A stretch of 64,000 nt of DNA from the NCBI RefSeq assembly GCF_016097555.1, contig NC_054706.1, forward strand, positions 75,796,218-75,860,217, written 5' to 3'. Of this stretch, positions 1,822-62,380 are shown in pieces. The position numbers and the translations under genes were made by a program. This stretch comes from Gigantopelta aegis. Lineage: Eukaryota; Mollusca; Gastropoda; Neomphalida; Peltospiridae. The notes beneath the pieces are model-generated. The model searched no databases. It was not told the DNA's origin and saw nothing but the letters and a program-made list of their open reading frames with translations. Position 1 is the first letter of the stretch. Each line of letters starts with the position of its first letter.

Positions 1822-3311
1822 TTAATGTTCTAATTCTGTAGGAAATCCATTGTTGCACATGCCGTATGCGGCCTGGCATTAACCTGCTGAAAAAGTTCTC
1901 TCTGTCGATCCAAAATGGGAAGCATGTGACGGCGAAGAATTTCATCCCGGTAAGCTACAGCTGTCAGGTTGCCTTGTACGAACACAAGTTCACTTCTGCC
2001 GGTGTATGAGATGGCTCCCCACATCATGAGACTCCCTCCACCGAATCTGTCAACTTGGACAACGCGGCTATTGGCAAAACGTTCATTGTGGCATCTGTAA
2101 ACATGTTGTCGTCCATCATGTCGCTGTAGAAGGAAACGTGACTCGTCGCTGAACCATACTCGCCACCACTTTCCCCAAGTTCCACCCCTGTACATTTGTG
2201 CACCAGCGAACATGTAAATGTTGATGTTGACGTTGCAGGACGGGGCCAATATACATTCTCCTAGCCCGTAAACCAGCTTCTCGAAATAGGTTCCGAATGG
2301 TTTGTGCAGACACCGTTCTCAAACCAGGTATGCTGTGGCAGTTCGGTGACGCAAGTGCAGAACCTGGATGTAGCGATCTTGTGCTGCAGTTGTTATGCAA
2401 GGTCTTCCACTTGTGGGCCGGTCTTCAGCTAATTGAACTGTCCCAGAGACGTGAAATGGTGCTCTGATGGACGTTCATGTAGTGTGCGACTGCTGACTGC
2501 AATTCACCTAACTGGAGGCGGCCTATTGCAATGTTTCGATTCAGCAGGTTTAGTCTTGGCATCTTGTAACTAGTCTACGTCAAAATGGAAATGAGGCATC
2601 ATTGTGACCATTACAGCTTTAAATACCCATTACTACCTCAATCTCCCCCCCCCCCCCCGAGTTTCACATGCATTCGCCAAAATCTGACCATTCCACGCTG
2701 ATTTCCTGCAATTGTCGCACAACGTGCGTTAGATTTGTTTTAGGGTGCATTTGGGCATGCTGTCCCATTCCAGGAACATTAACAAACATGGTCATTCAGC
2801 AACATTGTACAAAAAACCCCCGATATTTTGTAAAATCAAACACTTTTCTTCTTTCCCTATCACATATGCATTTCTTTTTTTACAGAGTATAATTTAAAGA
2901 TCCTATCTAACTGAAAGTTAAAAATGTATATTGCTAATTGGAAAGTTAAGATTCATGTGTATACTGACATGAAGAATTTTGACTTTTTGCTTCGTTTGAC
3001 AGCAAACTGTTTGAAACGGATCTTTTTCGAAGAAATCCAAGTTCTCTGCAAGAAAAAATAATTAGTTAAACATAGTAAATCTATACAACTACTAGTGAAT
3101 AAAAGGTATGAAAAAGATAACTGAAAATTCATAATTATATCCATGCATCTACATGAAGAGATGATTTACATACATGTGTGCTACATACAGGAAACCAATT
3201 TGTCCGGTGTCTATTAAATGTTTTGTCTCTTTTTTCAAAGTTTTCATTGGAATGTTCTGATAAGTACTTGGCAAAATTATTCTCTAGTCTCTAAAGCAGT
3301 TTCCATCAATA

Positions 3312-4797: not shown

Positions 4798-5635
4798 GTT
4801 TAATAAATACTCATAAAGCGCTTTAATTTCCAAACCGTGTATTGTTTTTCGCACGTAGCGAAATAATCAAAGGGAACGTGCGACTATGTTACTAAATGTT
4901 ATTGACACTTCTAATGACAGACCGGCCTCGGTGGCGTCATGGTAGGCCATCGGTCTACAGGCTGGTAGGTACTGGGTTCGGATCCCAGTCGAGACATGGG
5001 ATTTTTAATCCAGACACCAACTCCAAACCCTGAGTGAGTGCTCCGCAAGGCTCAATGGGTAGGTGTAAACCACTTGCACCGACCAGTGATCCATAACTGG
5101 TTCAACAAAGGCCATGGTTTGTGCTATCCTGCCTGTGGGAAGCGCAAATAAAAGATCCCTTGCTGCTAATCGGAAGAGTAGCCCATGTAGTGGTGACAGC
5201 GGGTTTCCTCTCAAAATCTGTGTGGTCCTTAACCATATGTCTGACGCCATATAACCGTAAATAAAATGTGTTGAGTGCGTCGTTAAATAAAACATTTCTT
5301 TCTTTCTTTCTAATGACAGTGCCAACTTTGTAATTGACCGCGATGTCGAGTTCAAATGGATACATTGTTTAATAAATACTCATAAAGCGCTTTAATTTCC
5401 AAACCGTGTATTGTTTTTCGCACGTAGCGAAATAATCAAAGGGAACGTGCGACTATGTTACTAAATGTTATTGACACTTCTAATGACAGACCGGCCTTAA
5501 CCATATGTCTGACGCCATATAACCGTAAATAAAATGTGTTGAGTGCGTCGTTAAATAAAACATTTCTTTCTTTCTTTCTAATGACAGTGCCAACTTTGTA
5601 ATTGACCGCGATGTCGAGTTCAAATGGATACATTG
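4798..5635. repeat. Local tandem duplication, second copy lacking 300 bp of the SINE
   Basis: Copy 1 (4798-5366, 569 bp) contains a whole SINE. Copy 2 (5367-5635, about 269 bp) repeats the same flanks, but the SINE between 'gaccggcc' and 'ttaaccatatg' is missing. The breakpoint has a 2-bp CC microhomology. Outside the deletion the copies look almost identical, so the duplication is recent and postdates the SINE insertion. Confidence 0.85.
4921..5307 (+). repeat. Full-length tRNA-derived SINE with target-site duplication
   Basis: The head resembles a tRNA, with A-box-like 'tggcgtcatggtaggcc' and B-box-like 'gggttcggatccc'. The body has the 'aaaagatcccttgctgctaa' core, and the tail ends 'aaataaaacatttctttctt'. 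A 12-bp duplication TTCTAATGACAG flanks it at 4909-4920 and 5308-5319. The internal Pol III promoter looks intact. It is a SINE, not a tRNA gene. Confidence 0.88.
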
Positions 5636-6742: not shown

Positions 6743-7953
6743 GAATCCGGGTCGTTTTGCCCTTATTCCTATTCGCCCCGGAGTCGTTTCGCCCTTATTC
6801 CCGTTCGCCCCGAGTCATTTCGCCCTTAGAATGAGTCGTTTTGCCCCTATGTATTGGGGTGGTCCGAAACAAAATGTGGACAACTACAATAAATTTATTT
6901 TTTGTTAGATTTTACCCACATTTTGTCCAGACAGAAATCTTGAGAAAAAAAACAATGGCATGGATTCCACATACTAGATGATAACCATGTCACCTGTATC
7001 GACTTCGCTGAGATCGCATAGGGCAAAAAGCATGTAATTTTGTGCCGGCTTCCATTTTGACTTTTTATGGAATATTCTACAAGAGGGGTGAAAGGATATG
7101 ACTTAATCTAACAACCGTTGAATGTAATAACATGTTATGATATAAATGCAAATGTGATGACGTCATATTATTTTATTATTATTAATATTATTTGATTGTT
7201 TAAAGATATCACTAGAGATAATTGATTTTATATTAATATTTTAGAGTCTTTCATCCCTCTTGAAGAGTATTCCATAAAAACCCAAAATGGCAGACAGCAG
7301 AAAACTGCATGTATTTTGCCCTAAACTGGCTGTAACGAGAACAGACATCGATATGTTGTTAAAACCTGTTTAAAACAGCACAAAACACGCATTATGTTAA
7401 AACATTTTAATAACAAAATACGCATTATATATTTTAATAACAAGGACAACAACAATGCCATTTATAGCATACAACAAGCATTTTTTAAATGTAAACTGAA
7501 GCAAATGGACCTTTTAATATTGCATCAGCATAGATGTAAACATGACACGTCAATGGATATTACAGAGGCCAATTTCGCAAATTTGCTAAAAAGAGGTCTC
7601 CCCCCCCCCCCCACACACACACCAAAGCACTTTATAACTAATATGTCCTATCGACAATATCATTGTGTAGGCTAGTCTTTGTATTTATTAATATAAAATA
7701 CATCAGGCCCGTAGGAACTGGGATGGTGTGAGGGGACGGGTTCTTTAAAATATTGCACATAATAACATATACATATAAATGGTGTTTATGGTTGATAAAG
7801 GGTTACAAATTGATAATCTATATCTGATTTGCAACTAGAGTCACGTAAACAAATTTATTCATCATTCACAAACATAAACATGAGGGCGAAACGACCCTGT
7901 GGAGGAGAAACGACACGGGGCGATCGGGAATAAGGGCGAAACGACCTGATACC
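6743..7953. mobile_element. hAT-like MITE with long TIRs and 8-bp TSD
   Basis: The left end carries repeated 'ggtcgttttgcccttattc' and 'gtcgtttcgcccttattccc' motifs. The right end carries the inverse, 'gggaataagggcgaaacgac'. An exact 8-bp duplication CATGTAAC flanks it at 6735-6742 and 7954-7961. No coding capacity is visible. The 8-bp duplication fits hAT, but the transposase source is unknown. A second copy lies at 54701-55341. Confidence 0.75.
6990..7350. repeat. Imperfect inverted repeat inside the MITE
   Basis: The arms at about 6995-7090 and 7240-7350 are imperfect reverse complements. They share 'tttttatggaata' and 'gggcaaaa' blocks around a spacer of about 150 bp. They could fold into a long hairpin. 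This may be a separate foldback element nested in the MITE. Confidence 0.6.
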
Positions 7954-8639
7954 CATGTAACAGTAGACTACTGGCATTTCCTGTTATGATACCAAACAAA
8001 CCTAGCAAGTTCTTTTGTTGATTTCATAACTAACACAAAATCAAGAACCAAAACACATTTCGAATCATCCGCCGGATCCACCAATAAGCTCAAACTAGCA
8101 GCCCCTAAGAGTTGTGCAAAGTTAGCAGTCATTTCATGCAGACAAAATAGTCTTTGTTAGTGTTCACATTTATCGATTGGTATGTTCTTTTCAGTACTTC
8201 CTGTATCTTCTAGCAGCCACTAAGAGATTATTAATACACTTACAGGCTGCAGCATAGGTAAACAAGGGTAGTACTAATGACAATTCACATTTTTATTCGT
8301 ACATTAATATAGTATTACACATAGAAGATGTATTACAGTTTTGTCTTCAATCTTAGGTGCATTAAATTAGTAAAATTACGGTCTCTACCTTACATTACGG
8401 TCTCTACGTTAAAAACTAACACATTTATGTGAATGTTTACCGCCATTTTTTTTACTTTTTAAACTTTATTAATGAATTATGCTAAATTTAGTAGAAACCT
8501 CTGGATTTCCTAAGTTCTGGTACGGTATACATACCCATTTCAATATGCCCACTTTTTTAAATATACTTTTCAAATATTAAAATTACGATTTTACAATGCT
8601 GAGCAAACAACAGTAATCCCCATGTTAAATGATGTTTCC

Positions 8640-11600
8640 ATCTATAGGGCTACTAAAAGTCGATACAAATCCCTGCTATTGATTTTTAAGTGTAACATTA
8701 AGTGTATAACTAAAATATATAAATAAATCCCTGTCAAGCTTCCCAGTTTTTCAAATACAGTTCTCTAACTTAAGCTAAAATTCCTATTTTATTATACGGA
8801 GCATACGAAAAGTAACCCCCATGTTTCCATCTCTACTAAAGTCGATGGAAACCACTGCTATTGGTTTCTAAGTATCACACTAAGTGTATAACTGGAATAT
8901 GTAAACAAATCCCTGTCAACCTTCCCAGTTTTTTAAATATATTTTTTTAACTTGGGCTAAAATTCCGATTTTACAATGCCGAGCATACGAAAAGTCACCC
9001 CCATCTTTCCATCTATACTAAAGTCGATGAAAACCACTGCTATTGTTTTCTAAGTATCACACTAAGTGTATAACTGGAATATGTAAACAAATCCCTGTCA
9101 ACCTTCCCAGTTTTTTAAATATATTTTGTTAACTTGGGCTAAACTTCCAATTTTACAATGCCGAGCATACGAAAAGTCACCCCCATGTTGCCATCTATAC
9201 TAAAGTCGATGGAAACGACTGCTATTGTTTTCTAAGTATCACACTAAGTGTATAACTAGAATATGTAAACAAATCCCTGTCAACCTTCCCAGTTTTTTAA
9301 ATATATTTTTTTAACTTAGGCTAAAATTCCGATTTTACAATGCCGAGCATACGAAAAGTCACCCCCATGTTTCCATCTATACTAAAGTCGATGGAAACCA
9401 CTGCTATTGGTTTCTAAGTATCACACTAAGTGTATAACTAGAATATGTAAACAAATCCCTGTCAACCTTCCCAGTTTTTTAAATATATTTTTTTAACTTG
9501 GGCTAAAATTCCGATTTTACAATGCCGAGCATACGAAAAGTCACCCCCATCTTTCCATCTATACTAAAGTCGATGGAAACCACTGCTATTGTTTTCTAAG
9601 TATCACACTAAGTGTATAACTAGAATATGTAAACAAATCCCTGTCAACCTTCCCAGTTTTTTAAATATATTTTTTTAACTTGGGCTAAAATTCCAATTTT
9701 ACAATGCCGAGCATACGAAAAGTCACCCCCATCTTTCCATCTATACTAAAGTCGATGGAAACCACTGCTATTGGTTTCTAAGTATCACACTAAGTGTATA
9801 ACTAGAATATGTAAACAAATCCCTGTCAACCTTCCCAGTTTTTTAAATATATTTTTTTAACTTGGGCTAAAATTCCAATTTTACAATGCCGAGCATATGA
9901 AAAGTCACCCCCATGTTGCCATCTATACTAAAGTCGATGGAAACCACTGCTATTGGTTTCTATGTATCACACTAAGTGTATAACTAGAATATGTAAACAA
10001 ATCCCTGTCAACCTTCCCAGTTTTTTAAATATATTTTTTTAACTTTGGCTAAAATTCCGATTTTACAATGCCGAGCATACGAAAAGTCACCCCCATGTTG
10101 CCATCTATACTAAAGTCGATGGAAACCACTGCTATTGGTTTCTAAGTATCACACTAAGTGTATAACTAGAATATGTAAACAAATCCCTGTCAACCTTCCC
10201 AGTTTTTTAAATATATTTTTTTAACTTGGGCTAAAATTCCAATTTTACAATGCCGAGCATACGAAAAGTCACCCCCATCTTTCCATCTATACTAAAGTCG
10301 ATGGAAACCACTGCTATTGGTTTCTAAGTATCACACTAAGTGTATAACTAGAATATGTAAACAAATCCCTGTCAACCTTCCCAGTTTTTTAAATATATTT
10401 TTTTAACTTGGGCTAAAATTCCGATTTTACAATGCCGAGCATACGAAAAGTCACCCCCATCTTGCCATCTATACTAAAGTCGATGGAAACCACTGCTATT
10501 GGTTTCTAAGTATCACACTAAGTGTATAACTAGAATATGTAAACAAATCCCTGTCAACCTTCCCAGTTTTTTAAATATATTTTTTTAACTTGGGCTAAAA
10601 TTCCAATTTTACAATGCCGAGCATACGAAAAGTCACCCCCATCTTTCCATCTATACTAAAGTCGATGGAAACGACTGCTATTGGTTTCTAAGTATCACAC
10701 TAAGTGTATAACTAGAATATGTAAACAAATCCCTGTCAACCTTCCCAGTTTTTTAAATATATTTTTTTAACTTGGGCTAAAATTCCGATTTTACAATGCC
10801 GAGCATACGAAAAGTCACCCCCATCTTTCCATCTATACTAAAGTCGATGAAAACCACTGCTATTGGTTTCTAAGTATCACACTAAGTGTATAACTAGAAT
10901 ATGTAAACAAATCCCTGTCAACCTTCCCAGTTTTTTAAATATATTTTTTTAACTTGGGCTAAAATTCCAATTTTACAATGCCGAGCATACGAAAAGTCAC
11001 CCCCATCTTTCCATCTATACTAAAGTCGATGGAAACCACTGCTATTGGTTTCTAAGTATCACACTAAGTGTATAACTAGAATATGTAAACAAATCCCTGT
11101 CAACCTTCCCAGTTTTTTAAATATATTTTTTTAACTTGGGCTAAAATTCCAATTTTACAATGCCGAGCATACGAAAAGTCACCCCCATCTTTCCATCTAT
11201 ACTAAAGTCGATGGAAACCACTGCTATTGGTTTCTAAGTATCACACTAAGTGTATAACTAGAATATGTAAACAAATCCCTGTCAACCTTCCCAGTTTTTT
11301 AAATATATTTTTTTAACTTGGGCTAAAATTCCAATTTTACAATGCCGAGCATACGAAAAGTCACCCCCATCTTTCCATCTATACTAAAGTCGATGGAAAC
11401 CACTGCTATTGGTTTCTATATATCACACTAAGTGTATAACTAGAATATGTAAACAAATCCCTGTCAACCTTCCCAGTTTTTTAAATATATTTTTTTAACT
11501 TGGGCTAAAATTCCGATTTTACAATGCCGAGCATACGAAAAGTCACCCCCATCTTTCCATCTATACTAAAGTCGATGGAAACCACTGCTATTGGTTTCTA

Positions 11601-14600
11601 AGTATCACACTAAGTGTATAACTAGAATATGTAAACAAATCCCTGTCAACCTTCCCAGTTTTTTAAATATATTTTGTTAACTTGTGGTAAAATTCCAATT
11701 TTACAATGCCGAGCATATGAAAAGTCACCCCCATGTTGCCATCTATACTAAAGTCGATGGAAACCACTGCTATTGGTTTCTATGTATCACACTAAGTGTA
11801 TAACTAGAATATGTAAACAAATCCCTGTCAACCTTCCCATTTTTTTAAATATATTTTTTTAACTTGGGCTAAAATTCCGATTTTACAATGCCGAGCATAC
11901 GAAAAGTCACCCCCATCTTTCCATCTATACTAAAGTCGATGGAAACCACTGCTATTGGTTTCTAAGTATCACACTAAGTGTATAACTAGAATATGTAAAC
12001 AAATCCCTGTCAACCTTCCCAGTTTTTTAAATATATTTTTTTAACTTGGGCTAAAATTCCGATTTTACAATGCCGAGCATACGAAAAGTCACCCCCATCT
12101 TTCCATCTATACTAAAGTCGATGGAAACCACTGCTATTGGTTTCTAAGTATCACACTAAGTGTATAACTAGAATATGTAAACAAATCCCTGTCAACCTTC
12201 CCAGTTTTTTATATATATTTTTTTAACTTGGGCTAAAATTCCGATTTTACAATGCCGAGCATACGAAAAGTCACCCCCATCTTTCCATCTATACTAAAGT
12301 CGATGGAAACCACTGCTATTGGTTTCTAAGTATCACACTAAGTGTATAACTAGAATATGTAAACAAATCCCTGTCAACCTTCCCAGTTTTTTAAATATAT
12401 TTTGTTAACTTGTGGTAAAATTCCAATTTTACAATGCCGAGCATATGAAAAGTAACCCCCATATTGCCATCTATACTAAAGTCGATGGAAACCACTGCTA
12501 TTGCTTTCTAAGTATCACACTAAGTGTATAACTAGAATATGTAAACAAATCCCTGTCAACCTTCCCAGTTTTTTATATATATTTTTTTAACTTGGGCTAA
12601 AATTCCGATTTTACAATGCCGAGCATACGAAAAGTCACCCCCATCTTTCCATCTATACTAAAGTCGATGGAAACCACTGCTATTGGTTTCTAAGTATCAC
12701 ACTAAGTGTATAACTGGAATATGTAAACAAATCCCTGTCAACCTTCCCAGTTTTTTAAATATATTTTGTTAACTTGGGCTAAAATTCCGATTTTACAATG
12801 CCGAGCATACGAAAAGTCACCCCCATCTTTCCATCTATACTAAAGTCGATGGAAACCACTGCTATTGGTTTCTAAGTATCACACTAAGTGTATAACTAGA
12901 ATATGTAAACAAATCCCTGTCAACCTTCCCAGTTTTTTAAATATATTTTTTTAACTTGGGCTAAAATTCCGATTTTACAATGCCGAGCATACGAAAAGTC
13001 ACCCCCATCTTTCCATCTATACTAAAGTCGATGGAAACCACTGCTATTGGTTTCTAAGTATCACACTAAGTGTATAACTAGAATATGTAAACAAATCCCT
13101 GTCAACCTTCCCAGTTTTTTAAATATATTTTTTTAACTTGGGCTAAAATTCCAATTTTACAATGCCGAGCATATGAAAAGTTCACCCCCATGTTTGCCAT
13201 CTATACTAAAGTCGATGGAAACCACTGCTATTGGTTTCTAAGTATCACACTAAGTGTATAACTAGAATATGTAAACAAATCCCTGTCAACCTTCCCAGTT
13301 TTTTAAATATATTTTTTTAACTTGGGCTAAAATTCCAATTTTACAATGCCGAGCATACGAAAAAGTCACCCCCATCTTTCCATCTATACTAAAGTCGATG
13401 GAAACGACTGCTATTGGTTTCTAAGTATCACACTAAGTGTATAACTAGAATATGTAAACAAATCCCTGTCAACCTTCCCAGTTTTTTAAATATATTTTTT
13501 TAACTTGGGTAAAATTCCAATTTTACAATGCCGAGCATACGAAAAGTCACCCCCATGTTGCCATCTATACTAAAGTCGATGGAAACCACTGCTATTGGTT
13601 TCTATATATCACACTAAGTGTATAACTAGAATATGTAAACAAATCCCTGTCAACCTTCCCAGTTTTTTAAATATATTTTTTTAACTTGGGCTAAAATTCC
13701 GATTTTACAATGCCGAGCATACAAAAAGTCACCCCCATCTTTCCATCTATACTAAAGTCGATGGAAACCACTGCTATTGGTTTCTAAGTATCACACTAAG
13801 TGTATAACTAGAAGATATGTAAACAAATCCCTGTCAACCTTCCCAGTTTTTTAAATATATTTTTTAACTTGGGCTAAAATTCCAATTTTACAATGCCGAG
13901 CATACAAAAAGTCACCCCCATCTTTCCATCTATACTAAAGTCGATGGAAACCACTGCTATTGGTTTCTAAGTATCACACTAAGTGTATAACTAGAATATG
14001 TAAACAAATCCCTGTCAACCTTCCCAGTTTTTTAAATATATTTTGTTAACTTTGGCTAAAATTCCGATTTTACAATGCCGAGCATACGAAAAGTCACCCC
14101 CATGTTGCCATCTATACTAAAGTCGATGGAAACGACTACTATTGTTTTCTAAGTATCACACTAAGTGTATAACTAGAATATGTAAACAAATCCCTGTCAA
14201 CCTTCCCAGTTTTTTAAATATATTTTTTTAACTTGGGCTAAAATTCCAATTTTACAATGCCGAGCATACGAAAAGTCACCCCCATCTTTCCATCTATACT
14301 AAAGTCGATGGAAACCACTGCTATTGGTTTCTAAGTATCACACTAAGTGTATAACTAGAATATGTAAACAAATCCCTGTCAACCTTCCCAGTTTTTTAAA
14401 TATATTTTTTTAACTTGTGGTAAAATTCCAATTTTACAATGCCGAGCATATGAAAAGTCACCCCCATGTTGCCATCTATACTAAAGTCGATGGAAACCAC
14501 TGCTATTGCTTTCTATGTATCACACTAAGTGTATAACTAGAATATGTAAACAAATCCCTGTCAACCTTCCCAGTTTTTTAAATATATTTTTTTAACTTGG

Positions 14601-15219
14601 GTTAAAATTCCAATTTTACAATGCCGAGCATACAAAAAGTCACCCCCATCTTTCCATCTATACTAAAGTCGATGGAAACCACTGCTATTGGTTTCTAAGT
14701 ATCACACTAAGTGTATAACTAGAATATGTAAACAAATCCCTGTCAACCTTCCCAGTTTTTTAAATATATTTTTTTAACTTGGGCTAAAATTCCAATTTTA
14801 CAATGCCGAGCATACGAAAAGTCACCCCCATCTTTCCATCTATACTAAAGTCGATGGAAACCACTGCTATTGGTTTCTAAGTATCACACTAAGTGTATAA
14901 CTGGAATATGTAAACAAATCCCTGTCAACCTTCCCAGTTTTTTAAATATATTTTGTTAACTTGGGCTAAACTTCCGATTTTACAATGCCGAGCATACGAA
15001 AAGTCACCCCCATGTTGCCATCTATACTAAAGTCGATGGAAACGACTACTATTGTTTTCTAAGTATCACACTAAGTGTATAACTAGAATATGTAAACAAA
15101 TCCCTGTCAACCTTCCCAGTTTTTTAAATATATTTTGTTAACTTGTGGTAAAATTCCAATTTTACAATGCCGAGCATATGAAAAGTCACCCCCATGTTGC
15201 CATCTATACTAAAGTCGAT
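8640..15219 (+). repeat. 182-bp satellite array, left arm (about 36 units)
   Basis: Monomers repeat every 182 bp, for example the block 'atctatactaaagtcgatg' at 9011, 9193, 9375 and 9557. Conserved blocks include 'cactaagtgtataact', 'aaatccctgtcaaccttccc' and 'acaatgccgagcatacgaaa'. The first two to three units (8640-9000) are clearly diverged, whereas interior units differ by only a few bases. This is the usual sign of homogenisation by unequal exchange in the interior. No coding potential was seen. Confidence 0.95.
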
Positions 15220-15419
15220 NNNNNNNNNNNNNNNNNNNNNNNNNNNNNNNNNNNNNNNNNNNNNNNNNNNNNNNNNNNNNNNNNNNNNNNNNNNNNNNNN
15301 NNNNNNNNNNNNNNNNNNNNNNNNNNNNNNNNNNNNNNNNNNNNNNNNNNNNNNNNNNNNNNNNNNNNNNNNNNNNNNNNNNNNNNNNNNNNNNNNNNNN
15401 NNNNNNNNNNNNNNNNNNN
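15220..15419. other. Assembly gap (200 N)
   Basis: Exactly 200 N separate the two inverted satellite arrays. The flanking ends are mirror images: 'ctaaagtcgat' on the left and 'atcgactttag' on the right. Any reading frame across the Ns is meaningless. The round number suggests a placeholder of unknown true length. Confidence 0.97.
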
Positions 15420-18330
15420 ATCGACTTTAGTATAGATGGCAACATGGGGGTGACTTTTCGTATGCTCGGCATTGTAAAATCGGAAGTTTAGCCCAAGTTA
15501 ACAAAATATATTTAAAAAACTGGGAAGGTTGACAGGGATTTGTTTACATATTCCAGTTATACACTTAGTGTGATACATAGAAAGCAATAGCAGTGGTTTC
15601 CATCGACTTTAGTATAGATGGCAACATGGGGGTGAATTTTCATATGCTCGGCATTGTAAAATTGGAATTTTACCATAAGTTAAAAAAATATATTTAAAAC
15701 ACTGGGAAGGTTGACAGGGATTTGTTTACATATTCTAGTTATACACTTAGTGTGATACTTAGAAACCAATAGCAGTGGTTTCCATCGACTTTAGTATAGA
15801 TGGCAACATGGGGGTGACTTTTCATATGCTCGGCATTGTAAAATCGGAAGTTTAGCCCAAGTTAACCAAATATATTTAAAAAACTGGGAAGGTTGACAGG
15901 GATTTGTTTACATATTCCAGTTATACACTTAGTGTGATACATAGAAAGCAATAGCAGTGGTTTCCATCGACTTTAGTATAGATGGCAACATGGGGGTGAA
16001 TTTTCATATGCTCGGCATTGTAAAATTGGAATTTTACCATAAGTTAAAAAAATATATTTAAAAAACTGGGAAGGTTGACAGGGATTTGTTTACATATTCT
16101 AGTTATACACTTAGTGTGATACTTAGAAACCAATAGCAGTGGTTTCCATCGACTTTAGTATAGATGGAAAGATGGGGGTGACTTTTTGTATGCTCGGCAT
16201 TGTAAAATTGGAATTTTAGCCCAAGTTAAAAAAATATATTTAAAAAACTGGGAAGGTTGACAGGGATTTGTTTACATATTCTAGTTATACACTTAGTGTG
16301 ATACATAGAAAGTAATAGCAGTGGTTTCCATCGACTTTAGTATAGATGGCAACATGGGGGTGACTTTTCATATGCTCGGCATTGTAAAATTGGAATTTTA
16401 GCCCAAGTTAAAAAAATATATTTAAAAAACTGGGAAGGTTGACAGGGATTTGTTTACATATTCTAGTTATACACTTAGTGTGATACATAGAAAGTAATAG
16501 CAGTGGTTTCCATCGACTTTAGTATAGATGGCAACATGGGGGTGACTTCATATGCTCGGCATTGTAAAATTGGAATTTTACCACAAGTTAACAAAATATA
16601 TTTAAAAAACTGGGAAGGTTGACAGGGATTTGTTTACATATTCTAGTTATACACTTAGTGTGATACTTAGAAAACAATAGTAGTCGTTTCCATCGACTTT
16701 AGTATAGATGGCAACATGGGGGTGACTTTTCGTATGCTCGGCATTGTAAAATCGGAAGTTTAGCCCAAGTTAACAAAATATATTTAAAAAACTGGGAAGG
16801 TTGACAGGGATTTGTTTACATATTCTAGTTATACACTTAGTGTGATACATAGAAACCAATAGCAGTGGTTTCCATCGACTTTAGTATAGATGGAAAGATG
16901 GGGGTGACTTTTCGTATGCTCGGCATTGTAAAATTGGAATTTTACCATAAGTTAAAAAAATATATTTAAAACACTGGGAAGGTTGACAGGGATTTGTTTA
17001 CATATTCTAGTTATACACTTAGTGTGATACTTAGAAACCAATAGCAGTGGTTTCCATCGACTTTAGTATAGATGGAAAGATGGGCGTGACTTTTCATATG
17101 CTCGGCATTGTAAAATTGGAATTTTAGCCCAAGTTAAAAAAATATATTTAAAAAACTGGGAAGGTTGACAGGGATTTGTTTACATATTCTAGTTATACAC
17201 TTAGTGTGATACATAGAAAGCAATAGCAGTGGTTTCCATCGACTTTAGTATAGATGGCAACATGGGGGTGAATTTTCATATGCTCGGCATTGTAAAATTG
17301 GAATTTTACCGTAAGTTAAAAAAATATATTTTTTAAAAAACTGGGAAGGTTGACAGGGATTTGTTTACATATTCTAGTTATACACTTAGTGTGATACTTA
17401 GAAACCAATAGCAGTGGTTTCCATCGACTTTAGTAAAGATGGAAAGATGGGGGTGACTTTTCGTATGCTCGGCATTGTAAAATTGGAATTTTAGCCCAAG
17501 TTAAAGAAATATATTTAAAAAACTGGGAAGGTTGACAGGGATTTGTTTACATATTCTAGTTATACACTTAGTGTGATACATAGAAAGTAATAGCAGTGGT
17601 TTCCATCGACTTTAGTATAGATGGCAACATGGGGGTGACTTTTCGTATGCTCGGCATTGTAAAATCGGAATTTTAGCCCAAGTTAACAAAATATATTTAA
17701 AAAACTGGGATGGTTGACAGGGATTTGTTTACATATTCCAGTTATACACTTAGTGTGATACTTAGAAACCAATAGCAGTGGTTTCCATCGACTTTAGTAT
17801 AGATGGAAAAATGGGGGTTACTTTTCGTATGCTCGGCATTGTAAAATCTGAATTTTAGCCGAAGTTAAAAAAATATATTTAAAAAACTGGGAAGGTTGAC
17901 AGGGATTTGTTGACATATTCTAGTTATACACTTAGTGTGATACTTAGAAACCAATAGCAGTGGTTTCCATCGACTTTAGTATAGATGGCAACATGGGGCT
18001 GACTCTTCGTATGCTCAGCATTGTAAAATTGGAATTTTAGCCGAAGTTAAAAAAATATATTTAAAAAACTGGGAAGGTTGACAGGGATTTGTTTACATAT
18101 TCCAGTTATACACTTAGTGTGATACTTAGAAACCAATAGCAGTGGTTTCCATCGACTTTAGTAGAGATGGAAACATGGGGGTTACTTTTCGTATGCTCCG
18201 TATAATAAAATAGGAATTTTAGCTTAAGTTAGAGAACTGTATTTGAAAAACTGGGAAGCTTGACAGGGATTTATTTATATATTTTAGTTATACACTTAAT
18301 GTTACACTTAAAAATCAATAGCAGGGATTT
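15420..18330 (-). repeat. 182-bp satellite array, right arm (about 16 units)
   Basis: This is the same monomer as in the left arm, in inverted orientation. Near the gap two monomer types alternate. One has 'cggaagtttagcccaagtta' with 'attccag' and the other has 'ggaattttaccataagtt' with 'attctag', giving a 364-bp dimer at 15420-16147. Outermost units (17800-18330) are diverged, mirroring the left arm. Confidence 0.95.
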
Positions 18331-19060
18331 GTATCGACTTTTAGTAGCCCTATAGATGGAAACATCATTTAACATGGGGATTACTGTTGTTTGCTCAGCA
18401 TTGTAAAATCGTAATTTTAATGTTTGAAAAGTATATTTAAAAAAGTGGGCATATTGAAACGGGTATGTATACCGTACCAGAACTTAGGAAATCCAGAGGT
18501 TTCTACTAAATTTAGCATAATTCATTAATAAAGTTTAAAAAGTAAAAAAAATAGCGGTAAACATTCACATAAATGTGTTAGTTTTTAACGTAGTGACCGT
18601 AATGTAAGGTAGAGACCGTAATTTTACTAATTTAATGCACCTAAGATTGAAGACAAAACTGTAATACATCTTCTATGTGTAATACTATATTAATGTACGA
18701 ATAAAAATGTTAATTGTCATTAGTACTACCCTTGTTTACCTATTCTGCAGCCTGTAAGTGTATTAATAATATCTTAGTGGCTGCTAGAAGATACAGGAAG
18801 TACTGAAAAGAACATACCAATCGATAAATATGAACACTAACAAAGACTATTTTGTCTGCATGAAATGCCGGATCCTCTTCTTTTTTTCTTCGTTTTTAAC
18901 TTCCGCCAATGCTGGAACAGCCCTAAGTTCAGCCAGTAACGTTTCGCTAACGTTCGCGAACTATTTGATTGGTTCCCGACGTGGCCATTTGGTTTAACGT
19001 GAAGCGCATAAACCAGTCTAGCGGACGTTTTTCTGCTCAGTCTGACTGAGCGCAGACCAG

Positions 19061-19165
19061 AGGTCAGGTCATAGGATTTTACGTGCACATTCAGAACAAG
19101 CTGTTGCAGCGCACGTCTGTCCCGGGCGCAGGTGCCGGTCTCGGCCGTCTCCTCCGTCCAGGACA
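19061..19165 (+). repeat. Dispersed repeat module (copy 2 of 3)
   Basis: This shares 'aggtcaggtcatagg', 'ttttacgtgcacattcaga' and 'gcgcacgtctgtcccgggcg' with the copies at 6561 and 58140-58240. It lies about 600 bp upstream of the REXO5 start. The GC-rich 'ggtgccggtctcggccgtct' belongs to the repeat and should not be taken as a promoter CpG island. Confidence 0.6.
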
Positions 19166-19533
19166 TGCGGTGAACAGCCAAACACACATACGTTTAAATA
19201 GTGGCAAAAGTGTAGTTTCCAAACTTAAAAGAGAAACGTTTCGACACTTTAACACCCCTCCTCTACCACCCCTCCCCCCAAAAATAAATAAATAAATAAA
19301 ATCAAACAAGTATTATTTTGACATTTATTGTAGCTTATGAAGGTCTGGTTGCATCGTTCGTAATGGTTTCTACAAAATATATAGTTCGGTCAGGTTCCCA
19401 AAAAGCCGAACAATCCAGAAGCAAGAAAAAAACATTCCATTTATTCAAATTTCCCCATTTGTTGTGGCCATTTGTTCATTCATTTATACTTATTTTCGTG
19501 CTTATATTCAATTATGATTCACTCAGGCTGTCC

Positions 19534-22700: not shown

Positions 22701-25700
22701 ATGTCATTTTTAGCGAGGTTATCGCGCAAAGCGATAGCAAACGATAAGAGAGATTTCATTAAAATTAATTTGTAAGAAAGATTAATATTTTTAACATTGA
22801 AAATATTCGTTAATTTATACATTTATTTAACGTAGTGATAGATATTAATTTTGTAAACAATAATTTGACAATTTACATAGGTAGCCTAGAAGGAAATAAA
22901 CCGCGATTGAGTTATCTTTTAGTTTAGACTTCAGCTGCAGCAAATAGTCTTGATCATACAAAGCGTTTGTTATAAGTTATAAGTTATAAGTAGGCATAAA
23001 AACAATGGGCCATGTTGTTGATTGTCATAAATGACTACGAATAGTTAACCCATGACCCAAATGAAAATTCCATGACCCGTACGAACCAGGTTTATCTGGC
23101 CGCTGGATTACATCAAATTATTTGTTTTGGTCTGCTATGTTAAAAAAAAATCCTACCACTGGCAAATATACTCCTTTATTTCACTAAATCATATTGCTCA
23201 ACCGCCACCTGTGGGTCACACTAGGGGAGCAATTAACAGTTACAGCGACTCCTGACAGCAAAGAGCGTGCACATAAAAGGTGGAATTTCAGACATGTCTT
23301 GTTGATTGTTAAGTGGCTGGACGTGCCAAAACATTTGGTAGCCCGGCGGACTACCAGGGTTAGATAACTGGTAGTCCGAGTGAGAAATCAGTAGCCAAAA
23401 CAGCCCGGGCTACTGCTAAGGTCGAGCCCTGGAACTACATTCTAATTAGTTCACTAGATAAATGTTTTAGCCAATTAGTTATTATTGTGACATTTATTTC
23501 GAGCTTTATAGTATATATATTTTTTAAAACATGACCATATGTCGGTTTTTCAATTAGGGTTTGTAATTACATTGTTTTCCAGGTGGTGTCGTTTACTGCG
23601 CATGGGCAAAGTTTCTTCTGTTGTTGTCATGGTAATAAATGAACTGTGCGTTTCAGACCTGGAAGAGTATGCTGATTGTCTCCCCTTTCTCAAAGAAAAC
23701 TTTTCTATGGTGAGTTTAGTATCAGTGGTTCAGGGTTAGCTCTGGGTGAGCAAAACATTTTTCAAATTATCTATTAAAAAGGCAAGATCACAGCTATTTT
23801 CATGCAAAATACCAATTATTACATGCAGTTGTTTCACCAAATTAAAATAAAATTTGTCATTTGTTCCTAAAATTAGATGAGTGCCAGGTAATTTGTTAAG
23901 AATGTGCTGTTGATCCTGAGTTCGACAAATTTAATTTTTTTATTAAACTATTTTTTGTATTGAAAAAAAAAATCTTTCCCAGGTGGTCAAAATGCCTTCG
24001 ATGAGGTTTATATATAAAATGTCTTGCTAAATTTCTTGGGGAAACACTATGTTAATATAGAAATAGGAGTTAACTTTATCCAAGTGCAGATCTAATGGGG
24101 TGGACCTGAGAAACATGCCCCATTTTAAATGCCCCTATTAAAACTATTTGTTAATTTCACGAATACCAAACCTTTATTGGGGTTGCCATTTCAGAGGTTA
24201 GTCCATGTGCCCTTCTTCTCTAGGTACTCTCCCTAAAATATTTCCTGGGTCCCCCCTTGCTATCTAATTACAGTAAGTTTGTTCTTCCTCTAGATCTGTA
24301 ATCTTAGTTACTGATATGTAACCAGGTTGTTGATTAGTTTTGATTTTGTAGCAGATTTTGTTCCAAATAGGCACCTGTGTCAGTCAGTAGAACCCTCTGA
24401 TTGGGTTTTTTTCCCATCCCAACCAGTGCACCACGACTGGTATATCAAAGGTTGTGGTATGTTTTGTCCTGTCTGTGGGAAAGTGCATATAAAAGATCCC
24501 TTGCTACTAATGGAAAAATATTTTGGGTTTCCTATCTTAGACTATATGTCAAGAGTTACCAAATGTTTGACATGTAATAGCCAATGATTAATAAATCAAT
24601 GTGTTATAGTGGTATCGCAACCCCTGCAACTGCCCACAGCTGTCAGCAATGCAGTGGAGTTTTTCATTCTAAGTGGCACTTTTTTTTGTTGTGGACTATA
24701 TTCTTTTCTTTTTTTCACGGCATGCATTTTGCTGTGGACATTTTCTTAATTGCGGGTGTTGTATCGATAAACAAAACAAACTTTAAACATATTCCTAAAC
24801 AGTTTTGTCAATCCTTAATGTAATCAGTAAAACATACATTGTAGCCAGCTTGTAAATGACTATAGCCAGTACAATTCCTCAGCAGCTGGCTTGTTTTGAT
24901 GAGCATGTTAACCCTGCGTGATTAAACAATGTGCTGGGGTGTCATACCAATCATTCCTTTCTTCTGTTTGGCAGTTTGTAGAGGTGACCTCACCTCACCA
25001 GTACCAGAGTACAGCTGATCAGGATGTTTTCCGTGTTCCACTCAGTCGAACGCAGCTGTCCATAATGTTTAACAAGAAATATAAACGAAGTAAGTATTTA
25101 TAGGATATTAAACGAGCTTCCATTTCATATCACATTTATGTCCTGAGTGAAATAAATTTCAGTTGTCACAAGCTTTAGCAAATGACAATGAAAATTATTT
25201 CACGAGGGACATAAACATGATATGAAATGGTAACAAGTTTAATATCCTGTTAATTATCTGTAATCGATGTTAATCTATATCACTCAGCTCGTTTAGTTGG
25301 CATTCCTGACAGGCTGTGGTGTGCCAATCGATGACGGTGAAGTGTTACGTCCCACTAGGCATGATAGTGGGACGTATCATTTTGACATGTACCAAGATAG
25401 TTTTAACCATATGGGTTATAATCAAACATATCACCAATGTGGCAACCTGTTAAATTTACAACATCACTTAGCTGGACGCAGCTGACAAAACAGGAGGTAG
25501 AGTATTAATTTTATCATATCTTCATCCCACTTATTTGTGATTTGCAGTAAATATTTTGACATGTGTGTATAGATCCTAGCAACCTGTTTGTTAATGTTTT
25601 ACCATGTTTTGCAGAAATAAAGAAGTCACTAGACTCGAAGAAGAAGAGCGATACACAAGGAAACGAAACAATTGACAGGAGAAGTCTTCTACTGAATCCT

Positions 25701-28700
25701 AGTCAGTTGATATCAGAGGGTTACCCACTCCCCATCAAAACAGAGCAAGGTACAGTTAAAGTTTTATTTTGTGTAATGACAGAATTAGAGCACATTGATT
25801 TATTAGTCCCCTACTGGTCCAACCAGAGGGCACTACAGTGCTGTCTGGTGTATCGGCACACCTAAGCATTCAAAGACCATTTTCTATGTGAACACTGTGA
25901 AATACTTCATAAAATGTGTCTCTCACCAATGAAGCATTGCATAATCAGAAATGCACTACAAATTGTTTTATGTCTGTAATAAATAAACATTTAAAATTTG
26001 TCCATAAATGTACACATCCTCCTTGTATCCAAAACGATTTGCATGTCTGGTGATTCGGCGCAGTAGATGTGGATCGGTGACCCGACTATTTATGACCTCA
26101 TTTTGTAGCCCTTAAGCGCTACACTATTGTCCCAGGATTATTTTAGTACTTTTTTGTTTTATCTTGTCAAAAGCTATTACTATGAAAATGAACAATAACA
26201 CATGACCCATCTCATGATCTGTTTCGGAATCATTTTCTTGCAGATGCATACATATTCATTGTCATGCATGGCTAAGATGCCTACATGGATTTTTTTTTGT
26301 CGGGTAGATTGTGGATCTCATTTCGCTTTTATTTTATTAATTTTTTTATTATTATTATTTTATTTTTTTTGGGGGGGGTGGGGTGGGGTGTGTGTGTGTG
26401 TGTAAAAATGTGACAATTGTGAACTGGAATGACTGTCAATTAAGGTGTAAAACTTTTGTTTTGTTTGCATTTGTCTGTGTTTTCCTTTTCAGTTTAAATA
26501 AAAATAACCGAACAAAAATAATTACTATAATTTTAAAAATGTGGGAAAGGTGTTTTTAGACTGGTTTTAACATTCTTAATATCAATAAGGCTGACCTACT
26601 TCGCGTTTATGTACACGAAAGCAAGTAAATTATTTATTTTGAAATTATATATTATTGATAATTAAAAAAACCCCATTAATTGTACTATTAACAATAAATA
26701 TATTGATACTTGATTAAAAATTGTAATTGAACTTTAATTCGTTAAAAACACCGACAACATGACAACTTCCTAAGCATACTTGAGCAAAATAACAAGTGCG
26801 CCAAACCACTGGCCGTGCCGATACACCGGACACGGTTGTATAGGTTTCATCTCCGTCTGTCTGTCCATACATCTGTCCCACATATAGTTTGCTGGATGTT
26901 TTTTTTTAGAATGCCTTGAGATATTGAACTGAAATGTTCAGTATAGCTTTATCATGTACTGTACTGTTACAGATCAAGTTTAACTTTTGTGGTGATTTAC
27001 CTATTTTTGACGGAGTTATGGTCCTTGAACTTGGGAAGTATGAAAATTAGTTTTTCAGAAGGCCTTGAGATATTGACCTCAAATTGTGTGTATAGCTTTA
27101 TAATGTACTGTTACAGATCAAGTTCAACTTTTAAGGCGATTTACCCATTTTTGACGGAGTTATGGCCCTTAAATGTAGGAGATATGAAAATTAGTTTTTC
27201 GGACTTTTATATTGATATTGATGTGAAATTTTGTATATACCTTTATCATGTACTGTTACTGATCAAGTTTAACCTTTGTGGTAATTTACCCACTTTTCAC
27301 AGATGTACCTGTATTGCCCTTGAATTTCGGCGATATGAATAATTGTTGGGTTTGATAGGGGGACATGTATTGCTTTAGCAGTACTCTCGGAATGCTTCTT
27401 AATCATCGGCGTCATTTGATAATTCCAACACATAGTCTTAGTATAAAAACCTGCTACATTTTTAAATTAGTAGCAAGGGATCTTTTTTATGAACTTTCCC
27501 ACAGACAGGACAGCACAGCACGTGCCATAGCCAACTGAGTTCAAGGGTCGGAATTCTCCTCGGATCGGCTGTTTTCCTCTCATGGAACATTGTGTTTCCT
27601 CGCATTTTAAGCGTCCTTTTCCCCCAAAATGTGTCAGATGGCACAGATTTTAACCTAGGATTTCAAGAATTTCCGGGACCCCTCTATATATCCTCTTTTT
27701 TTACAGTTCACCAGTTACCACACCTGGAGTTAAATTGTGTTCCCCGGTACATGTGATAATCACAAAGTTAAATTGTGTTCCCCGGTACATGTGATACTCA
27801 CAAAGTTAAATTGTGTTCCCCGGTACATGTGATACTCACAAAGTTAAATTGTGTTCCCCGGTACATGTGATAATCACAAAGTTAAATTGTGTTCCCCGGT
27901 ACATGTGATACTCACAAAGTTAAATTGTGTTCCCCGGTACATGTGATAATCACAAAGTTAAATTGTGTTCCCTGGTACATGTGATAATCACAAAGTTAAA
28001 ACAAAACCTTAAATGTTGGTACAAGCATAACCTGGGGGGGGGGGGGGGGGGGGGGTATTTTGTCTACATCTTTTCTGTAATAAATAAATGAAACACTTTG
28101 AAATTAAGAGTGGAAAGGTGAAAAGCAATCAGTAATATTTTACCACTTAACTATATTGCATCTGCGAAGTATTGCAGAGATTAAAATTGTGTAGAATTCC
28201 AGATGTTTTAACAAACTAATATTTTGTCTAATAAATTAAATTTACTTTTCAGATAGATATAAAAAATTTGTGTTCAGCAAAGCAGTGTACACTAAACCTC
28301 AGTCGAATAGTCCAATGTTTGCAATCGACTGTGAAATGGTAAGTGAAAACGTGACAGCAGAAAGAAGGTTGAGAAATATTCATGTGAATGTGCTTGTGGT
28401 TCATCATCAGTGACTGATGAAAACATTATTATTATTTTTTAATTAGAGATAGAGAATAACTGGTTACTGTCTTACGATAACGACTTTACCCTGTGGTTAC
28501 TGTGTCACGATAACGACTTTACCCTGTGGTTACTGTCTTACGATAACGACTTTACCCTGTGGTTACTGTCTTACGATAACGACTTTACCCTGTGGTTACT
28601 GTCTTACGATAACGACTTTACCCTGTGGTTACTGTCTTACGATAACAACTTTACCCTGTGGAAGGGGCGGGATGTAGCCCAGTGATAAAGCGCTCACTTG

Positions 28701-31700
28701 ATGCACGGTCGGTTTGGGATCAATCCCCTTCAGTGGGCCCATTGGGCTATTTCTCGTTCCAGCCAGTGCATCACGACTGGCATGTCAAAGGCCGTGGTAT
28801 GTACTACCCTGTCTATGGGATGGTGCATATAAAAGATCCCTTGCTAATCGAAAATAGCCCATGAAGTGGCAACAGCGGGTTTCCTCTCTCAATATCTGTG
28901 TGGTCCGTAACCATATGTCTTGACGCCATATAATCGTGTTGAGTGCATCATTAAATAAAACATTCCTTTCTTTCTTTACCCTGTGAAGGTTAGATTTTTA
29001 TCTAAATTAGAAAGAATGGTGAATGCCATGAGGTGACTGAAAATATAGAAATTTATCTAGTCATAATATTTTGCCAATACAGTCATATAGTGATTGCAGG
29101 ATAAAAAAGATTAGCATTTGCAAAAATGAAACTGACTTTAGTTATTAGGCAGTGTACATTTGTTTTGGTTATTAGTAATATTACAGCTTTTGTACTATTA
29201 AATTACAGACCACTTAGAACATTTTGCTTAATTCTCAGTTTTGGTAATTCTGGTGTTTGTGGTAGCTGAAAATACATTTTTTGTACGTTTTGTTGTTTAC
29301 ATCAGTTTATAGTTACATCTTTGAATGTTTAACTCAATGCATGATTAAAAAATTAAAAAATTAATTAAATTAAAATTTTAATTGAATCTTTTAATTTAAA
29401 AAAAAGTTTAATTAACTTTTTTCCCCTGTAACATGTTACGGTGAACATCTATTGATGCAACCATCAGTGCTGCAGAATGTTTATGGTCATCAAGACAATA
29501 AGTATTGAATTACTTGAATGTTTGTGCTGTGATGTTTGATTGTTTTCGTCCAGTGTTTGACTACTGCTCGGAGGAACGAGCTGGCCCGGGTGTCTGTAGT
29601 GAATGAGAAACTGAAGCTGGTTTATGAGAGTTACGTCAAGCCCTACAACAAGATCATTAACTATCTGACAAGGTACGCTATATATATATTTCAGGTATAG
29701 TGGAATGACTATAGATATTTTATATGTCATCACACTTAGTATTGCTATGTATATATTTCAGATATAGTAGAATGACCATAGATATTTTATATGCCATTTC
29801 ACTTAGTATTACTATATATATATTTAAGATATAGTGGTATCACCATGGAGATTTTATATGCCATCACTCTTAGTATTGCTATATAGAGAATATCTAGTTA
29901 ATGACGTCGGATATCTGCTTTATTCTGTGACGGTAAGAATGGGAAATTTTGCGAGGCTCTGCCGAGTGGAATTTCTCATTCGCAGGAGACAATATTTCGA
30001 AATGTCAGGTAACTGGAAGTCAATTCATATGGTTTTTTTACCAATAGTTCAGTTGTGTGAATTATATTTGCGTAACCTGTGGGTTAACTGATTGCATACC
30101 TCAAAGTTGCATTGAAATTATATTTTAAATACATGATTTTTAGCTTAAACGTAGAGTTAAAACAAAATACAAAAGAAAATATTTTATAAAACAGATTCTT
30201 TTATGCTTGCTAAAGTTAACAATATTTTAAAAGGACTAAATATCAGCCCCAGTACTAAAACAAAATAGATACACTGCCAGATTCCTTTTCTCGTTTTGCG
30301 GTGGCCAAGTTACTTTCACTTTATCAATGATACTTCTATACTACAGTGATGTTCCAAATCTTCGTTTTTTAAAGCTCATTATGCGATATTAGTATTTTTC
30401 AGCTTTTGTGACACTTTTGGATTGTGTTAAAACTGTTTTCAACATTTATAAACTGTTATGTCTAATATAGGCCTATATTTCTTTAGAGATGAAATAGCAG
30501 GAGATAAGGCCCCCAGCGGGTCGTGACATTTCTGTAACACTTTTGGCTTGACTCTATACTGAACATTTACTTAGACTGGTCGCAAGTTACAACTGTTGCA
30601 ATATAACATTGTTTACTGATTTGCTGCACATCAATAATCTAAAAATCAGCCTAAAACATTTGTTGGAATACTAGTCAAACTTTAGGGTCTCGAAATCACA
30701 ATACTCAGCTGTATAATAAACTTCCTGTAATCGTAAAGTTTGCAAGTTTTAATTTCTGAACGGCTACAGGTCACGATGTAACCGATTTGCTGTTCGCGTA
30801 AATTTAATTTTGCTTACCCGACATGCGAACAGAATGGCCCTGCATAAGGCCTGAACAGGATAAAGCAAATATCCAACATCTTTAACTAGTTATTTTGTTT
30901 ATCCTGCAGACCATAAACATTAAGGCAATTATTTCTTTTATTTCGGCCACATTGTACAATGATCTAGAGGTCAAATGAGCAATTTTGTAATGTAGGCTTT
31001 GCATGTGACGTTCTGTCAACAGAAATGGTGGTTGTAGGATAGATATATATATTTCAGGTATAGTGGTATGACCAAGACGATCCTAGATCCCATCACAGTG
31101 AGACTGGAAGATGTTCAGCGCGATTTACAGAGACTGTTACCATCAGACGCCATCTGGTGTGGACAATCCCTCTGTTCTGACTTGATAGCGTTACAGGTAA
31201 GATGTACAAGTTTCTACTCTGTTGTCTCTGTATACATGTTCAGCGCGATTTACAGAGACTGTTACCATCAGACGCCATCTGGTGTGGACAATCCCTGTGT
31301 TCTGACTTGATAGCGTTACAGGTAAGATGTACAGGTTTCTACTCTGTTGTCTCTGTATACATGTTCAGTGTGATATACAGAGACTGTCTCACCATAGTGT
31401 AGTCAGAAGGTGAATTAGAGGTATTACTTTTCCAGCAGTGGTGATGCTGTGAATGTCTTACTTTTGCATTTAAATTCAATGTTACTTTTTTGTTTTTAGG
31501 TACGTTTTTCACAAAATACGTCCCAGGATAATGAAACCTGCATCTTTAACTGTCTATCTCAGTGCATATTAAATGCCTTTTTATTTATTAAATTAAATTT
31601 TTTACAAAATGAATTTACATTAATTTCGATTTAAAACCCCACAAAAAACCCCAACCCAACTAAATTCTAAATTGATTTTTAAATATATTCCCTCCCCCCT

Positions 31701-62089: not shown

Positions 62090-62380
62090 GATAATAAAGG
62101 GATCTTTTATATACACAGACAGGATAACACATACCACAGCTATTTCTCATTCCAGCCAGTGCACCACGACTGGTTGTATGAAAGGACGTGGTATGTACTA
62201 CCCGGTCTGTGAGATGGTGCATATAAAAGATCCCTTGCTGCCAATAGGAAAGAGTAGCCCATAAAGTGGCAACAGCGGATTTCCTCTTTCAATATCTGTG
62301 TGGTCCATAACCATATGTCTGATGCCATATAACCGTAAATAAAATGTGTTGAGTGCATTGTTAAATAAAACATTTCCTTC
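62090..62380 (+). repeat. SINE body, forward
   Basis: It has 'ccagtgcaccacgactggtt', 'aaaagatcccttgctgccaa' and a tail 'aataaaacatttccttc' that abuts the 82-bp array directly. Confidence 0.8.

What the first reader, a model, noticed from the sequence alone, without database searches (positions are those of the whole stretch)
8130..18867. Giant foldback element whose arms are 182-bp satellite arrays
Inverted arms with about 500 bp of unique tip sequence followed by dozens of 182-bp units form one coherent mobile-looking unit of at least 10.7 kb. Known foldback elements have tandem repeats in their inverted ends, but usually with far shorter units. I do not recognise this one from any family. 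It may be a route by which satellite DNA is dispersed.
Basis: partly seen in the sequence, partly recalled or inferred. Interest (0 to 1): 0.8.

Follow-up and report, generated by a model that had tools for sequence, protein, structure and literature searches.

The report
Foldback transposon with satellite-DNA arms
A stretch of about 10.8 kb looks like a transposon of the foldback kind whose two mirror-image arms are mostly tandem copies of a 182-bp sequence; a fruit-fly element called Tetris is built in the same way, so this looks like a large new example of a known kind, with its centre still unread.

Summary
The inverted structure is real, at the stated coordinates. Arms 8130-15219 and 15420-18867 (reverse strand) are 97% complementary over the outer 1,547 bp. 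Each arm: a unique tip of about 364-395 bp, a degenerate unit, a diverged unit identical in both arms, then similar 182-bp units; 36 and 16 unit intervals in all. Two corrections. The centre is a 200-N gap, so any core is unread. Units this long in foldback arms are published: about 220 bp in Tetris, about 210 bp in Galileo.

Evidence for insertion as one unit: CCGGATCC occurs only twice in 64 kb, once abutting the right tip and once 50 bp outside the left tip; those 50 bp carry a 16-of-17 copy of a tip motif. This fits an 8-9 bp target-site duplication with one longer end. Comparable shared 8-mers arise in about 0.1-0.4% of control trials, but the pair was picked after looking. Unit order is partly shared between arms near the gap, suggesting that the arms are copies and the left one later grew by 21-26 units.

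Most likely a nonautonomous, Tetris-like foldback transposon. Only one copy could be examined; no host genome is held.

The parts
8072..8079 (+). left copy of candidate 8-bp target-site duplication CCGGATCC (9 bp, from 8071, if the preceding G is counted)
   Evidence: two occurrences on the + strand of the window, 8072 and 18868, none on the - strand; controls 144 of 52,701 and 387 of 358,400
8080..8129 (+). 50 bp of left end outside the inverted repeat, probably part of the element
   Evidence: carries CTAGCAGCCCCTAAGAG, 16 of 17 identical to 8210-8226 in the tip; score 29 against a maximum of 22 in 300 shuffles; BLAST E 0.023 within the window
8130..8493 (+). left unique tip (flanking domain); inner limit approximate, 8493 to 8524
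   Evidence: 6 mismatches to the right tip; 8130-8524 not more similar to the unit than shuffles
8494..8650 (+). left unit 0: degenerate copy of the 182-bp unit
   Evidence: gapped alignment to consensus unit from 8494; 8525-8626 about 74% identical to units
8651..8833 (+). left unit 1: 183 bp, 29 differences from consensus, identical to right unit 1
   Evidence: (L01-R01 distance 0)
8834..15219 (+). left array of canonical units (35 full units plus 13 bp, cut by the gap)
15220..15419 (.). assembly gap, 200 N; centre of the element unread
15420..18163 (-). right array of canonical units (15 full units plus 13 bp, cut by the gap)
18164..18346 (-). right unit 1, identical to left unit 1
18347..18503 (-). 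right unit 0, degenerate (mirror of 8494-8650)
18504..18867 (-). right unique tip (mirror of 8130-8493)
18868..18875 (+). right copy of candidate target-site duplication CCGGATCC, directly abutting the tip

Best explanation
This is one insertion of a foldback-type DNA transposon of the Tetris kind: long composite terminal inverted repeats, each made of a unique outer tip and an inward array of 182-bp satellite units. The part that can be read shows no gene, so it was most likely moved in trans by a cut-and-paste transposase encoded elsewhere that recognises the tips and makes an 8-9 bp target-site duplication. Shown here: the paired arms, their composition, the identical unit 1, the partly shared unit order, and the CCGGATCC pair. 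Inferred: that the pair is a target-site duplication, that the 50 bp at the left end belong to the element, that a transposase acts in trans, and the history of the arrays. Proposed history: an arm with tip, decayed edge units and array was copied into an inverted pair, or kept alike by exchange between arms; unequal exchange and gene conversion then shuffled variants, and the left arm expanded by a net 21-26 units.
For: Arms 97% complementary over 1,547 nt, limits 8130 and 18867. CCGGATCC abuts the right tip and lies 50 bp outside the left tip, with no other copy on either strand of the 64 kb; controls gave 711 hits in 200,000 draws (draws with the two stretches under 3 kb apart were skipped but not subtracted), 144 of 52,701, 387 of 358,400 for GC-rich 8-mers, and 0 of 52,701 other stretches for this 8-mer itself. 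The 50 bp between carry a copy of a tip motif. Unequal arms (36 and 16 unit intervals) with identical unit 1. Same-direction colinear blocks between arms: for block lengths 3, 4, 5, 6, 7 the best block is matched by 5, 0, 1, 5, 2 of 400 order shuffles (length 7: R04-R10 with L30-L36, mean 4.0 differences); the local alignment R02-R15 with L23-L36 scores 29.3, reached by 1 of 400. 17 of 25 recurrent unit variants occur in both arms.
Against: No second copy could be examined, so mobility itself is not shown (no match). The candidate duplication is not flush with both arms: 50 bp intervene on the left. It was found by looking, so its significance is weaker than the raw control figures. The arms lie on either side of a 200-N gap. 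Counted from the tips, unit 2 onward is not in register between the arms (mean 7.87 differences at offset 0 against 7.78 overall). No fitting transposase was found, but only 10 of the 43 frames were scanned; the one transposase match was a Tc3-type fragment below Pfam's cut-off at 2116-2424.
Confidence: 0.7

Rival explanations
1. Segmental inverted duplication: the edge of an ordinary satellite array was copied in inverted orientation by template switching or break repair, with no transposition. The arms end together simply because that is where the copied segment ends.
For: Homology between any inverted duplicate pair ends at one pair of positions, so the sharp shared ends are not in themselves evidence for a transposon. 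Satellite arrays in kb-scale inverted pairs are known in Tribolium (PMC13081366, passages).
Against: Does not predict the CCGGATCC pair around the unit, nor a tip motif copy in the 50 bp beside it.
Confidence: 0.17
2. Two separate insertions of an array-bearing element (for example a Helentron-derived HINE or a tandem-repeat MITE) lie tail to tail, with their inner ends hidden in the gap.
For: HINE elements with internal satellite-like arrays are described in the Pacific oyster (PMC7492417, PMC8268682, passages); the centre here is unread.
Against: Helitrons leave no target-site duplication (recalled), against the CCGGATCC pair. The arms share not only sequence but part of the unit order. The inner ends of both would have to fall inside the gap.
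Confidence: 0.08
3. Scaffolding artefact: two contigs, each ending in the same dispersed satellite, were wrongly joined in inverted orientation.
For: Exactly 200 N between the arms. Both contigs end at the same unit phase, position 13 of the unit, about 1 in 182 by chance, which suggests a systematic cause of the break.
Against: The CCGGATCC copies lie on the two sides of the join. The tips are 98.5% alike over 395 bp. The arms are not identical (172 of 182 bp match at the contig ends), which argues against one palindromic chimeric read.
Confidence: 0.05

Closest known systems
Tetris (Drosophila virilis foldback transposon, TIR-220 repeats)
   Same: Composite inverted ends with an outer unique domain (up to 866 bp) and an array of about 220-bp, AT-rich, homogeneous repeats; 8-10 bp target-site duplications; no apparent coding capacity; related arrays of up to 66 units; long arrays flanked by two tips seen on DNA fibres; the unique domain shares a 37-bp stretch (about 80%) with the repeat (PMC4079207: abstract, passages, section 10 whole, Discussion part 1 of 2).
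   Different: Unit 182 bp; inverted ends at least 3.4 and 7.1 kb against up to 1,735 bp in Tetris; sequence not compared (no Tetris sequence was at hand); one copy only here; any inner and middle domain unread.
Galileo, subfamily F (Drosophila mojavensis, P superfamily)
   Same: Tandem repeats of about 210 bp inside long inverted ends; the two ends of one copy can carry different numbers of repeats (PMC3573991, passages).
   Different: Up to three repeats per end, ends up to about 1.26 kb, 7-bp target-site duplication; P-type transposase known.
Tm1 (Mutator/Foldback, root-knot nematodes)
   Same: Variable tandem repeats in composite inverted ends, unequal arms, 8-10 bp (mostly 9) target-site duplications in 45 of 53 elements, and short non-inverted sequence between duplication and inverted repeat (PMC3169594, passages).
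   Different: Repeat of about 14 bp; non-inverted ends of 7 bp on both sides, against 50 bp on one side here.
Tribolium satellite macro-dyads
   Same: Kb-scale inverted satellite arrays thought able to form hairpins (PMC13081366, passages).
   Different: Within multi-megabase satellite regions; no transposon-like tips mentioned in the passages read.
HINE / Helentron elements with central arrays (Pacific oyster)
   Same: Mobile elements carrying satellite-like arrays (PMC7492417, PMC8268682, passages).
   Different: One array between two different modules with short subterminal inverted repeats, not a pair of inverted arrays.

Membership tests
Foldback-type transposons (structural class) | long inverted ends containing internal tandem repeats | tested here: met
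Foldback-type transposons (structural class) | target-site duplication of about 8-10 bp | tested here: inconclusive
   CCGGATCC pair, no other copy in the window, flush on the right only
Foldback-type transposons (structural class) | multiple dispersed copies | not testable with these tools
   no genome held for the window; no second copy of the tip in the window; no match for short motifs in viral contigs or for 8080-9200 in plasmids
Foldback-type transposons (structural class) | unequal repeat number in the two ends of one element | tested here: inconclusive
   36 and 16 unit intervals, but both arrays are cut by the gap, so these are minimum counts
Tetris (as a sequence family) | sequence similarity to Tetris flanking domain or TIR-220 | not tested
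   no Tetris sequence was fetched; the likeness claimed is of architecture only
Mutator superfamily | MULE-type transposase, in the element or in a partner with the same tips | not testable with these tools
   centre is a gap; no genome
P superfamily (Galileo) | P-type transposase, 7-8 bp target-site duplication | not testable with these tools
   an 8-bp duplication would not exclude it; no transposase seen
Helitron/Helentron (HINE) | two unlike terminal modules around one array, no target-site duplication | tested here: not met
   the two ends are inverted copies of one tip; CCGGATCC pair. This tests the structure as one element, not the rival of two elements tail to tail

The most novel reading that the evidence does not exclude
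The element transposes complete satellite palindromes: arrays of this 182-bp satellite across the genome begin at foldback tips, so that a transposon is both birthplace and carrier of a dispersed satellite with kilobase-scale inverted symmetry. Such satellite 'macro-dyads' had, according to a 2026 paper (PMC13081366, passage read), been documented only in Tribolium.
Probability: 0.18. Interest if true: 0.6.

Novelty: new member of a known kind. Interest (0 to 1): 0.36.

Why it matters
If further copies exist, this would extend the Tetris pattern (satellite DNA growing inside the inverted ends of a foldback transposon) to another genome, with arms about two and four times as long as the longest inverted ends given for Tetris, and would show unit by unit how such arms stay alike while their lengths drift apart. 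It would also give a transposon-based origin for kilobase-scale inverted satellite arrays.

Tried and rejected
Looked for a flush target-site duplication at 8129/18868: none; the bases flanking the two tips differ. Looked for wider homology between the 50-bp left extra and the right flank: 18 of 500 shuffles score as high, so not convincing. Looked for an unoccupied copy of the joined flanks in the window: only matches of 16-19 bp with E 0.15 or more. Looked for the tip as source of the 182-bp unit: 8130-8524 is not more similar to it than shuffles. Tested whether the mismatch-free 378 bp at the tip/array border marks a conversion tract: 1,334 of 20,000 random placements do as well, so not significant. 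Looked for ordered block duplications inside each arm: weak (best 9 of 200 shuffles for blocks of 5 and 6 in the left arm; 5 of 200 for blocks of 2, and 76 and 26 of 200 for blocks of 3 and 4, in the right). Considered a palindromic-read artefact: disfavoured because the arms differ. Structural RNAs and tRNAs: none found. Viral contigs for one exact unit motif and one exact tip motif, and plasmids for 8080-9200: no match; these collections would hardly hold such DNA, so this says little. In the unit comparisons, units L01 and R01 were left out (50 of 52 units used), because they are the diverged edge units. Only 10 of the 43 frames were scanned against Pfam. Ten papers were opened, for passages only except PMC4079207 (abstract, one section and part of another as well); PMC12628747, PMC11136912 and PMC13427858 were opened and added nothing decisive. 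The library lacks most subscription journals, so this is no proof of absence.

Full report
OBSERVATION. The inverted pair is real and its outer limits, 8130 and 18867, are those of the homology. The outer 1,547 bp are 97% complementary without gaps and the match runs 3,450 aligned positions at 96.3%. Tandem Repeats Finder gives period 182 at 8651-15219 (36.1 copies) and 15420-18346 (16.1 copies). Of 17 array intervals that I picked from the 33 rows, this one included, it is the only one with a long inverted match between its 500-bp flanks (395 bp, 98.5%); 4 of the other 16 showed matches of 14-99 bp and 12 showed none.

THE GAP. 15220-15419 is exactly 200 N, which looks like a placeholder rather than measured length. 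Both contigs stop at the same phase of the unit, 13 bases in, which chance gives about once in 182. The facing ends are not identical: 172 of the last 182 bp match, with 40 identical at the very end. A single palindromic read is therefore unlikely, but the content of the centre is unknown.

ANATOMY OF AN ARM. From outside inward: a unique tip, 8130 to about 8493; a degenerate unit 0 (8494-8650 in a gapped alignment; the match is solid only from about 8525); unit 1 (8651-8833), which differs from the consensus at 29 alignment columns yet is identical in the two arms; then canonical units. Of the 52 unit intervals, unit 1 included, 44 are exactly 182 bp and the rest 180-185 bp. The tips differ at 6 of 395 positions over 8130-8524, with 2 more differences in the rest of unit 0. 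The tip is not more similar to the unit than shuffled sequence.

TERMINI. Directly at the arm ends the flanks do not repeat. However, the eight bases directly after the right tip, CCGGATCC (18868-18875), occur only once more in the 64-kb window, at 8072-8079, in the same orientation and 50 bp outside the left tip. Controls: 711 hits in 200,000 draws of a random 8-mer against a random 100-bp stretch (draws under 3 kb apart skipped but not subtracted); window 8-mers present in the real left 100 bp, 144 of 52,701; 8-mers with at least 6 G or C, 387 of 358,400; this 8-mer in other stretches, 0 of 52,701. I chose the pair after looking and allowed an offset, so the real weight is less than these figures. 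The 50 bp between the left copy and the left tip contain CTAGCAGCCCCTAAGAG, matching 16 of 17 bases of tip position 8210-8226; the score of 29 exceeds the maximum of 22 in 300 shuffles, though BLAST gives it only E 0.023 within the window. I read them as part of the element, giving limits 8080-18867 and an 8- or 9-bp target-site duplication. Non-inverted end sequence between duplication and inverted repeat is known in Tm1, where it is 7 bp (PMC3169594, passages). Because the two copies lie on either side of the assembly gap, they also argue that the two contigs belong together.

HISTORY OF THE ARRAYS. Leaving out the diverged edge units L01 and R01, 35 left and 15 right units were compared. 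Mean differences per unit are 5.0 within the left arm, 9.4 within the right and 7.8 between. Arm labels matter (0 of 2,000 permutations reach the observed excess), yet 17 of 25 recurrent variants are in both arms. Variant sites show all four combinations in 77 of 136 pairs, 44 of them with each combination at least twice, and linkage falls with distance inside the unit (mean r-squared 0.174, 0.092, 0.075, 0.050 in four distance classes), as expected if short stretches are exchanged between units, though repeated mutation is not excluded. Counted from the tips, units beyond unit 1 are not in register (7.87 differences at offset 0). At other offsets order is partly preserved: read tip to centre, the best blocks of 3, 4, 5, 6 and 7 units are matched by 5, 0, 1, 5 and 2 of 400 order shuffles; the block of 7 is R04-R10 with L30-L36, mean 4.0 differences. 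The best local alignment pairs R02-R15 with L23-L36 (1 of 400 at either gap cost), while the opposite direction is unremarkable (113 and 48 of 400). The two registers differ by 5 units and I cannot choose between them. Both imply 21-26 extra units in the part of the left arm nearer the tip. This suggests that the arms are copies of one another through the array, not two arrays grown independently, and that the left arm expanded later; it is an inference from one locus.

MECHANISM. The readable part shows no gene: of the 43 stop-to-stop frames of at least 90 aa in the window, those inside the element run through the N gap, and one (18837-19193) overlaps its last 31 bp; none of these was scanned for domains. 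The simplest reading is a nonautonomous cut-and-paste element whose tips are recognised by a transposase from elsewhere. Whether the 182-bp units hold extra transposase-binding sites, as shown for Galileo (PMC3688188, passages), is untested. The superfamily cannot be assigned: 8-9 bp duplications fit Mutator-like elements, and 8 bp also fits others (recalled).

KNOWN RELATIVES. Tetris of Drosophila virilis has the same plan: an outer unique domain of up to 866 bp, about 220-bp tandem repeats in the inverted ends, 8-10 bp duplications, no apparent coding capacity, related arrays of up to 66 copies, and fibres showing long arrays flanked by two tips (PMC4079207). Galileo F carries up to three repeats of about 210 bp in an end, with different numbers in the two ends of one copy (PMC3573991, passages). 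What is larger here is arm length: at least 3.4 and 7.1 kb against up to 1,735 bp given for Tetris. Kilobase-scale inverted satellite arrays are described for Tribolium and said there to be documented only in that genus (PMC13081366, passages).

LIMITS. One copy, one window, no host genome. The host is taken to be a eukaryote, since a match to the Rrp7 N-terminal domain lies at 59422-59697. A mollusc is my guess from the look of the dispersed repeats (recalled, not tested).

On re-reading the calls I moved the tip/unit-0 border by one base (8493/8494), changed the unequal-arms test to inconclusive because the gap cuts both arrays, and added the results that had been left out. The odds did not change.

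Noticed in passing
62381-63612 and 62139-62380: A 15-copy array of an 82-bp unit starts where one copy of a dispersed repeat of about 220-330 bp (other copies near 5083-5312, 28663-28977, 59029-59364) ends; a second junction of a tandem array with a dispersed repeat.
   Followed up: partly
whole window: Rich in tandem arrays: 33 rows in the Tandem Repeats Finder output, with periods such as 33, 38, 43/84, 75, 87, 92, 125, 136, 144 and 145 bp.
   Followed up: no
45249-45637, 36962-37076, 25096-25254, 7019-7323: Self-complementary stretches of about 115-390 bp (67-87% identity) that look like hairpin MITEs.
   Followed up: no
2116-2424 (-): Tc3-type transposase helix-turn-helix match below Pfam's cut-off (E 3.6e-05, 24.4 against 31.5 bits), probably a decayed Tc1/mariner copy.
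   Followed up: no
59422-59697 (+): Match to the Rrp7 RRM-like N-terminal domain (PF17799, E 5e-07), probably an exon of a host ribosome-biogenesis gene.
   Followed up: no
15219 / 15420: Both contigs flanking the 200-N gap end at the identical phase of the 182-bp unit, in mirror orientation; cause of the break unexplained.
   Followed up: partly
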